Source: Theodoxus fluviatilis (Eukaryota > Mollusca > Gastropoda > Cycloneritida > Neritidae). Taken from it: a DNA stretch of 64,000 nt. Position numbers and translations under genes: made by a program. Location: assembly GCA_034096865.1 (NCBI GenBank), contig JAWQFJ010001795.1, forward strand, positions 45,001 to 109,000, read 5' to 3'. Below, in pieces: positions 8,713 through 12,529 of the stretch (its first letter is position 1; each line of letters begins with the position of its first letter). A model generated the notes under the pieces. That model had not been told where the DNA came from and did no database searches. It worked only from the letters and a program-made list of their open reading frames with translations.

Positions 8713-11700
8713 AATCTGGCCTTAATGATCCGATAACATTAATTTCTACTTGACAGTTCTGCAAAAAGGACTGAATCAGCTTGAACTAGTCAAACAGCAA
8801 TGAGTTAAAACAATTCTAGAATGAAAGGAAATACTTTACAAATTAACACTGAAAGATGAGTGAGAAAGCTAGTTAGCAAAACATTTACACATGAATGAAA
8901 ATAGTTCATGCAAGTTGAAACAGGTGTAAGTGTGAGTAAGCAAAGCAGGGCAAACCAGACCCTAGGCTTCCTCCGGCGCAACCTCAAGATCTCTTCAAGA
9001 GCAGTCAAAGAAAGGGCATACAAGGCCTTTGTCAGGCCTACTCTCAAGTATGCCCCGTCGGTCTGGGATCCTCACTCCCAGAAGCACATCGACAAGGTCG
9101 AGGCTGTCCAGAGACGTGCTGCCCGTTTCGTCTGCAACCGCTACCATAACACTTCAAGTGTCAGTCAGATGCTGGACTCCCTTGGGTGGCAGTCCCTGGA
9201 GGAACGCAGGAAGCTTGCTCGCCTGTCGATGCTGTATAAGATCAAACACAGCATCGTCCACTGTGTGCTGTCTTCCTAGTTGCCTGCTTCCTCATTCGGC
9301 GGGTTGGTGCAGACTTACAGAATTTGTTGAGTAACTTTGAAAGCAGGAGTCAGTCAATGAAGTTCCAAATTAATAACTGATTTATTCTATCATTAGGTGA
9401 TAGTCCGCAATTGTTCAGATTTATCAAATCTCCAAGCACAAAACAAAGGAGTAAACAGACGAACAGGTTGATGAAGAAAATCGATCAGCTTTCAAAGACA
9501 GTTGAATAGTTCAAGTTTCAGAAGATTGTTGGTTTCATGTAGGAATACAAAATTATGAGGCGAACATTTCTTTCAGCTATAGTAGCGGTGAGGATTTCTG
9601 AGTTTTTTGACTTGGTTAGTGCTCTCTCAACTGAATCCATGACTACTGTAAAAATAAACAGAAACATATTAAACCCTTAGGCTAGTTGCTATCTGGTTTA
9701 AGAATAAATTTGGAATTTGACAGATGAGCCTGGTCAAAACAGCTGCAGTTACAATTTAGCTTACAAACCAAGAAAAGCGTTGACCGGAAGAAACAATTTG
9801 AAAGGATTTGAAAACAATTTTGATAACAATAAACAGATTTAGACTGAACTCATTTCACATGAAAAACACGACAGAGTGTAAACGATACTCAAAAATGTAT
9901 ACAGCAATATTTACCAATAGTGGCCGCTCAGGAAGAACAACCGTTGAAGACAGCAACCAGCACAGACAGAAGGTAGTCCATGAATCACAGATCTGGTGGA
10001 TAAATTAGCTATTGAACGTAGAAGATTAGAGTTTGCAAGAACTCTTAGAAATTACAATTTACTTCCCTTACTGTACACTGAGGCCTAACTACTCTAAGAA
10101 ATGAACCGCTCTCCCCCTGCCGGTGGACAAACACTTCAGTCTCTCGAGCCACGCCACCTCTGACATGCTCGTCAGTGCGATCAGCGCTGGACTGACGTGT
10201 TGTATCCTTGCACAAAATCAGACTGGACCGAGCGAGACCGTTTCTAGTGACGATGACGTAATTAAGAACGTGACGTAGGACAGAAACTAGGACAATTGAA
10301 GAAAGTGACATCAAGAATAAACCAAGAAACCAAGAACTGAGATCTGTTTGTCAGATTTGTGCGTGCAACAGTGTGCAACACAACATGACGGACCTACAGC
10401 GACGCACAGAGGCTGAGCTTACACTCACTCCGAAATTCCGAACCCACGAGAGCGGCCTCAAAAAGGACATGAGACTCTTGAGTCACTGCCAATGAAGCTG
10501 TCCCCGCACGCACTTTTAGTGCTGACCCTGCTGTGGCCGCTCCCTCTCTGTACCGTCTGTGCAAAACTCCCTTTCGGCCTCCCTCACTGAACTTTCCTCA
10601 CTAAATAAATAGCGTGAACGGACAGAAAGAAACAAAGGAAGGAAAGTTATACAATTATCCATACGACACTCAATCTTTAAAGAAACCTTTCCTCCTTTCT
10701 TTCCTGCCACTAGCACAGGGGCAGGAACACACTGTCCTGGCATCAAGTCAAAGCTGGTTCCCCCACCACCACGCCAGCGACGATGTCATAGCCAGCAGTT
10801 CAGCCTCATCACCTGCCAAACGCAGTACCGGAGTGCAGGCTTCCTCCCCAGAACAATAAGGGACTGGAATGCCCTACCTCCAGCCGTGGTTGAGGCCAGC
10901 ACTGTCGACACGTTCGTGTCGCGTGCCTCCCGCTAGGACGGGACCACTGTGACTCTTCCCCCCCCCCCCCCCCCCCACCTCCCCAGACTCCCCAACCTGT
11001 AAAAAATTCATGTGCCAAAGTAATCACTATTGATGATCGTGGGCAGGAACGGAAAGAAGAAGAAGAAGAAGAAGAAGAAGAAGAAGAAGAAGAAGAAGAA
11101 GAAGAAGAAGAAGAAGATGTTACCTTACAATGTCTAATTTCACCCTTGTATGCCTCTTGCTGTCATTCTAGTACTTAGTTGCTTTGTGTTCAGCAACAGT
11201 CAACATAAGATTTTGCTTACCTTGAATAATGGTCCCTGTTATCTGTCGAAGTTCATCCACCAGTTTTTTCATCCTCTCATAGTTTTCCTGGAATACACAC
11301 AAGTTCTTCAGCAGTTTCCCACATTTATGATACTACAGCTTCATTCAAACATGCCCTGCATTTGCCATTCACGCACAAATGCTGCTATGCCACTCTATAA
11401 ATTATAATTCCACAGTTGACAAAAATCTCCCTCCTCTCCACAGCTTTGTATGTCAAGAATAATCTTCCTATCACTTGCCAGTTTACCACCATCACTGCTC
11501 TGTAAATATCACTGTTTCTGCTGCTCCAAAAATGTTTTCGTTGCTCCTGCTGCTGCTTCTTCTTGCCCCTGCTGCTGTTTGTTGTTGACACTTGTTGTTC
11601 CAGTGACTGCTGCTGGATCAACATTTTCCTAATAATAGCACCACAATGCGCATCCTACTGCGGATGAAAAAGTGAAAACAACATTCCATCACATAATCTG

Positions 11701-12448: not shown

Positions 12449-12529
12449 ATGGCCTTCATAGACGTCAGCCCTGACAGTCAATTTCCCATTCAGAATCTAC
12501 CCTACGGCGTTTTTTCTACTCCCGATAAC
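12449..12529 (+). CDS. FAH: FAH coding exon 1 (start codon)
   Basis: Residues 1-27, MAFIDVSPDSQFPIQNLPYG then VFSTPDN, ending in phase 0 at a GTAAGT donor. The ATG is followed by G, and the length equals that of the mammalian first exon segment. This is the N-terminal SH3-like domain start. Confidence 0.96.

What the first reader, a model, noticed from the sequence alone, without database searches (positions are those of the whole stretch)
11221..12529. Head-to-head MCCC2 and FAH genes with only 296 bp between start codons
The first exons of the leucine-breakdown gene MCCC2 (minus strand) and the tyrosine-breakdown gene FAH (plus strand) face each other across 12153-12448. Both pathways end in acetoacetate, one in mitochondria and one in the cytosol. 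A shared promoter would tie the two ketogenic routes together. In humans the two genes are on different chromosomes, so the pairing is not general.
Basis: partly seen in the sequence, partly recalled or inferred. Interest (0 to 1): 0.75.

Follow-up and report, generated by a model that had tools for sequence, protein, structure and literature searches.

The report
Head-to-head MCCC2 and FAH genes
In this mollusc-like genome two amino-acid-breakdown genes start back to back, 296 bases apart, a common arrangement in animals that probably means a shared promoter region but is not shown to link the two pathways.

Summary
On the minus strand lie five coding exons of MCCC2 (12152 down to 1992; the rest is off the window). 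On the plus strand lies a complete 13-exon FAH gene (12449-46771, 418 aa, 68-78% identical to the listed molluscan FAHs). The start codons are separated by 12153-12448 (296 bp). The exons are in frame with AG/GT junctions and the window has no N, so a pseudogene is unlikely. The gap is CpG-rich (13 CpG, observed/expected 1.13, window median 0.24), as expected of an unmethylated promoter, though other such peaks occur in the window. The best reading is an ordinary divergent (bidirectional) promoter: in seven animals 6-32% of genes sit in such pairs. That it ties two ketogenic routes together is untested here. A published analysis found such partners co-expressed but not related in biological process, and only 1 of 80 prokaryote fah loci held a carboxyltransferase nearby. 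Conservation in other molluscs, the key test, could not be run: no eukaryote collection is available and the own-genome search did not complete. Interest is low.

The parts
12153..12448 (.). Gap between the two start codons; candidate divergent promoter plus both 5' UTRs
   Evidence: 296 bp, GC 0.395, 13 CpG; CpG-rich ends with a more A+T-rich middle; one TATAAAA at 12253 (+)
12015..12152 (-). MCCC2 coding exon 1 (start codon; likely mitochondrial leader, inferred)
   Evidence: residues 23 on align to the MCC beta chain 8j4z
11221..11287 (-). MCCC2 coding exon 2
   Evidence: AG acceptor, GTAAGC donor; tblastn alone weak, E 0.16
8067..8151 (-). MCCC2 coding exon 3
   Evidence: tblastn E 3.7e-07
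3619..3720 (-). MCCC2 coding exon 4
   Evidence: tblastn E 1.5e-10
1992..2119 (-). MCCC2 coding exon 5; no further exon recognised in the window, so the rest presumably lies off its left end
   Evidence: tblastn E 1.2e-17
12449..12529 (+). FAH exon 1 (start codon)
19711..46771 (+). FAH exons 2-13: 19711-19821, 20993-21111, 24291-24340, 25435-25525, 26926-27023, 27855-28007, 28227-28357, 34894-34969, 39642-39688, 44764-44865, 45410-45527, 46692-46771 (stop)
   Evidence: open 418-aa frame, 12 acceptors AG and 12 donors GT; 1qqj E 1.7e-204

Best explanation
This is an ordinary head-to-head gene pair. One short, probably unmethylated and open stretch (12153-12448) holds two oppositely facing core promoters, one firing leftwards into MCCC2 and one rightwards into FAH, so both genes share open chromatin and whatever activators bind there. 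Gene positions, open reading frames and CpG enrichment are shown. Lack of methylation, transcription starting within the gap, and shared regulation are inferred. No pathway-specific reason for the pairing is needed.
For: FAH is open in frame throughout and the five MCCC2 exons in the window are in frame. The gap has a CpG observed/expected ratio of 1.13, against 0.41 in each of the stretches 11000-12000 and 12500-13500 and a median of 0.24 for 300-bp windows. Among 366 overlapping GC-matched 296-bp segments of the window, 21 (5.7%) have 13 or more CpG and the median is 3 (segments overlapping the gap were not removed). Genes in divergent pairs with start sites under 1 kb apart are 6-32% in seven animals (PMC3403606, passages). 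TATA boxes were infrequent and often one-sided in histone-related medaka bidirectional promoters (PMC11676430, passages).
Against: No start sites were mapped. The CpG peak is not unique: among the 25 highest of the 300-bp windows, higher or similar ratios lie at 14.4-14.6, 15.05, 16.9-17.1 and 54-56 kb, and 3.8% of all windows reach 1.0. A TATA-like hexamer on either strand occurs in 29% of GC-matched segments, so it carries little weight. Simple consensus words for ETS/GABPA, NRF1, SP1, YY1 and CCAAT were not found.
Confidence: 0.82

Rival explanations
1. The pairing is selected because it co-regulates leucine and tyrosine breakdown: one control region sets both routes to acetoacetate according to feeding state. 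This shares the promoter mechanism of the best explanation and adds a reason for it, so the two odds overlap.
For: Both proteins are amino-acid catabolic enzymes. My own rough reckoning, from no call: a random partner of FAH would be such an enzyme well under 1% of the time, more if metabolic housekeeping genes are enriched in such pairs. PMC3024869 reports functional similarity that rises with co-expression of partners (R 0.177; passages).
Against: In human, bidirectional partners are co-expressed but showed no excess similarity in biological process; a relation was seen only for cellular component, and none of the partners of 35 DNA-repair genes was itself a repair gene (PMC3403606, passages). 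The two enzymes here act in different compartments (recalled). Prokaryotes, where linked pathways often cluster, do not pair them in the sample seen: 1 of 80 fah loci (58 of them at least 15 kb) had a carboxyltransferase within the fetched flanks, 33% identical to MCCC2. MCC needs a second subunit (MCCC1), and its product is two reactions short of acetoacetate (recalled).
Confidence: 0.1
2. Assembly join or recent rearrangement unique to this individual or species, without regulatory meaning.
For: The window is full of long tandem arrays that challenge assembly, and no second genome could be checked.
Against: No N in the window, and 12001-12600 has no second copy in the window. The nearest tandem arrays longer than 400 bp end at 7828 and start at 19065 (shorter ones were not listed there, and a short GAA-type run lies about 1 kb from the gap at roughly 11053-11117). 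A join would have to fall by chance inside a 296-bp CpG-rich stretch between two gene starts.
Confidence: 0.05
3. Two independent promoters that are merely close, with an insulating middle and no shared control.
For: Of 13 CpG, most lie near the two ends of the gap, with an A+T-rich middle.
Against: At this distance the open chromatin would be expected to overlap (inference); divergent partners are generally co-expressed. In medaka liver, however, co-expressed divergent pairs were a minority (37-40%).
Confidence: 0.12

Closest known systems
Bidirectional (head-to-head, divergent) promoters of animal genes, start sites under 1 kb apart
   Same: Opposed genes, short gap, CpG enrichment, at most a one-sided TATA box
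   Different: Start sites not mapped; GC content is only 40% (medaka bidirectional promoters average 42%) and no ETS/NRF1/SP1 consensus word was found
Amino-acid-catabolism gene clusters of bacteria and fungi (liu, hmg-fah-mai, mcc-ivd; recalled)
   Same: Genes of breakdown pathways lying together
   Different: Here two genes from two different pathways, divergent, in an animal; prokaryote fah loci examined do not carry MCC (1 of 80 has any carboxyltransferase)

Membership tests
Bidirectional gene pair | Adjacent genes on opposite strands, 5' ends facing | tested here: met
Bidirectional gene pair | Transcription start sites less than 1 kb apart | tested here: inconclusive
   Start codons are 296 bp apart, which implies it unless remote non-coding 5' exons exist
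Bidirectional gene pair | Both transcripts driven by the shared stretch | not testable with these tools
   needs reporter or CAGE data
FAH (fumarylacetoacetase) | Full-length match with both family domains | tested here: met
   PF01557 and PF09298; query 1-416 to 1qqj 1-417
MCCC2 (MCC beta subunit) | Closer to MCC beta than to propionyl-CoA carboxylase beta | tested here: met
   Mitochondrial MCC beta 8j4z E 1.1e-61; mitochondrial PCC beta 7ybu E 3.6e-07. One chain labelled propionyl-CoA carboxylase beta (9tps) ranks second at 2.9e-48. Only the first 173 residues lie in the window
Selected metabolic co-regulation unit | Pair conserved across related species and co-expressed | not testable with these tools
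   No eukaryote genome collection; the genome search did not complete

The most novel reading that the evidence does not exclude
The MCCC2-FAH head-to-head pair is an old, conserved molluscan (or wider lophotrochozoan) arrangement kept because a single promoter sets leucine and tyrosine breakdown together.
Probability: 0.08. Interest if true: 0.45.

Novelty: new member of a known kind. Interest (0 to 1): 0.2.

Why it matters
If the pair proved conserved and co-regulated, it would be an unusual animal case of two separate catabolic pathways tied by gene placement, testable by simple expression comparison. As it stands it is one more divergent gene pair of a very common type. It is useful mainly as annotated promoter sequence for two disease-related enzymes in a mollusc.

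Tried and rejected
Pseudogene or retrocopy: rejected, because FAH has 13 exons with an open frame and the five MCCC2 exons in the window are in frame. Propionyl-CoA carboxylase instead of MCCC2: rejected on score. Gap as a repeat or transposon: no second copy of 12001-12600 in the window (window only). Prokaryote-style linkage: 1 of 80 loci at tblastn E 1e-20. Known RNA in the window: none at Rfam gathering scores.

Literature, as search listings in the held library: no paper found that describes the two genes as a divergent pair. MCCC2 + FAH + bidirectional promoter gave 0. Fumarylacetoacetase + methylcrotonoyl-CoA carboxylase + head-to-head gave 0. Fumarylacetoacetate hydrolase + bidirectional promoter gave 1, by title and start of abstract a transposon tool for mouse liver. 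MCCC2 + bidirectional + divergent gave 4, unrelated by title and start of abstract. Fumarylacetoacetate hydrolase + methylcrotonyl-CoA carboxylase + gene cluster + tyrosine + leucine gave 1, on Aspergillus salicylate breakdown, not opened. Searches gave background on divergent pairs; one search listed nothing useful in its 12 rows. Four papers were opened, for passages only: PMC4773876, PMC3024869, PMC11676430 and PMC3403606.

The species could not be pinned down. All 23 named rows among the first 48 FAH relatives are molluscs (which listed 120 of 7996). A FastTree placed the window's FAH with unionid and heterodont bivalves at support 0.77, inside a larger bivalve group at 0.85, in a tree that puts cephalopods and the bivalve Solemya among gastropods.

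Changes at the second reading: the molluscan identity range, the number of reactions between MCC and acetoacetate (two, not three), and the statement about nearby tandem arrays were mended. The odds of the 'two independent promoters' rival went from 0.15 to 0.12 so that the exclusive readings do not add to more than 1; no other odds changed.

Full report
Observation. This is exact. FAH exon 1 runs 12449-12529 on the plus strand and ends in a GTAAGT donor. MCCC2 coding exons 1 and 2 run 12152-12015 and 11287-11221 on the minus strand. The gap is 296 bp and the window holds no N.

Gene identity and intactness. I joined 13 FAH exons from 12449 to 46771. The 12 introns begin with GT and end with AG, and the joined frame is open for 418 residues. 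The product matches solved fumarylacetoacetate hydrolase over its length (1qqj, E 1.7e-204) and both FAH domains. The five MCCC2 exons in the window, out to 1992, give 173 in-frame residues. They match a mitochondrial MCC beta chain (8j4z, E 1.1e-61) far better than a mitochondrial propionyl-CoA carboxylase beta chain (7ybu, E 3.6e-07). Neither looks like a pseudogene in the part seen. The rest of MCCC2 is off the window.

Source. All 23 named rows among the first 48 FAH relatives are molluscs, at 68-78% identity; the first row is an unnamed sequence at 76%, and 120 of 7996 hits were listed. A quick tree of 68 sequences puts the window's FAH beside unionid and heterodont bivalves at support 0.77, too weak to name a class.

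The gap. It has 13 CpG and an observed/expected ratio of 1.13, against 0.41 in each of the stretches 11000-12000 and 12500-13500 and a median of 0.24 for 300-bp windows. Of 366 overlapping GC-matched segments 21 (5.7%) reach 13 CpG, with a median of 3; segments overlapping the gap were not removed. This is what an unmethylated promoter in a CpG-depleted genome looks like, though similar or higher peaks exist near 14.4-14.6, 15.05, 16.9-17.1 and 54-56 kb. CpGs sit mainly towards both ends, with an A+T-rich middle and one plus-strand TATAAAA at 12253. TATA-like hexamers occur in 29% of matched segments, so this is not significant. Simple ETS, NRF1, SP1, YY1 and CCAAT consensus words were not found. 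FAH has no in-frame upstream ATG before a stop. MCCC2 has two, at 12272 and 12293, which would narrow the gap if used.

How common is this. In published counts, genes in divergent pairs with start sites under 1 kb are 6.0-11.5% in five vertebrates, 17.9% in C. elegans and 32.2% in fly (PMC3403606, passages); in medaka 13% of gene pairs are divergent (PMC11676430, passages). The arrangement is an everyday one. No count could be made in this genome.

Does it couple two pathways. The paper that asked this found co-expression of partners in human and mouse, but in human no excess similarity in biological process, with a relation only in cellular component; none of the partners of 35 DNA-repair genes was itself a repair gene (PMC3403606, passages). 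Another study reports functional similarity growing with co-expression (PMC3024869, passages), so the literature is divided. I asked whether prokaryotes keep fah beside an MCC-like gene: 1 of 80 fah loci had any carboxyltransferase within the fetched flanks of up to 10 kb. That does not support a general advantage of linkage. The biochemical link is also looser than stated: FAH releases acetoacetate directly, whereas MCC is two reactions before the acetoacetate step of leucine breakdown and needs MCCC1 as well (recalled). I did not search the window for MCCC1.

What could not be done. No collection of eukaryote genomes is available here, and the search of the window's own genome did not complete in eight tries. 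Conservation in other molluscs, which would decide between an ordinary pair and a kept one, therefore remains open. Five literature searches aimed at the two genes found nothing on the pair.

Verdict. A correctly seen, ordinary head-to-head gene pair with a probable bidirectional promoter. The ketogenic coupling is an untested idea with a low prior.

Noticed in passing
window 21285-23788, 28597-34106, 35102-39569, 41015-44674: FAH introns hold very long tandem arrays (periods about 16, 15/27/54, 27 and 25 bp), together about 47% of the 34-kb gene, while its exons stay in frame.
   Followed up: partly
window 57531-58931 (+): A 466-codon stop-to-stop frame with at least four C2H2 zinc fingers follows FAH on the same strand, with CpG-rich stretches at 54-56 kb before it.
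   Followed up: partly
window 3920-5569 (+): A long reverse-transcriptase frame (PF00078) of a retroelement lies between MCCC2 exons 4 and 3, antisense to the gene.
   Followed up: partly
window 14270-15100 (+): A CpG-rich stretch in FAH intron 1 with a TATATAAA sequence followed by a short repeated unit; it may be a mobile-element promoter or LTR (read by eye; CpG).
   Followed up: no
window 417-1267: A tandem array of 60-bp units, about 14 copies and 99% alike, some 0.7 kb beyond MCCC2 exon 5; the high likeness suggests recent expansion.
   Followed up: no
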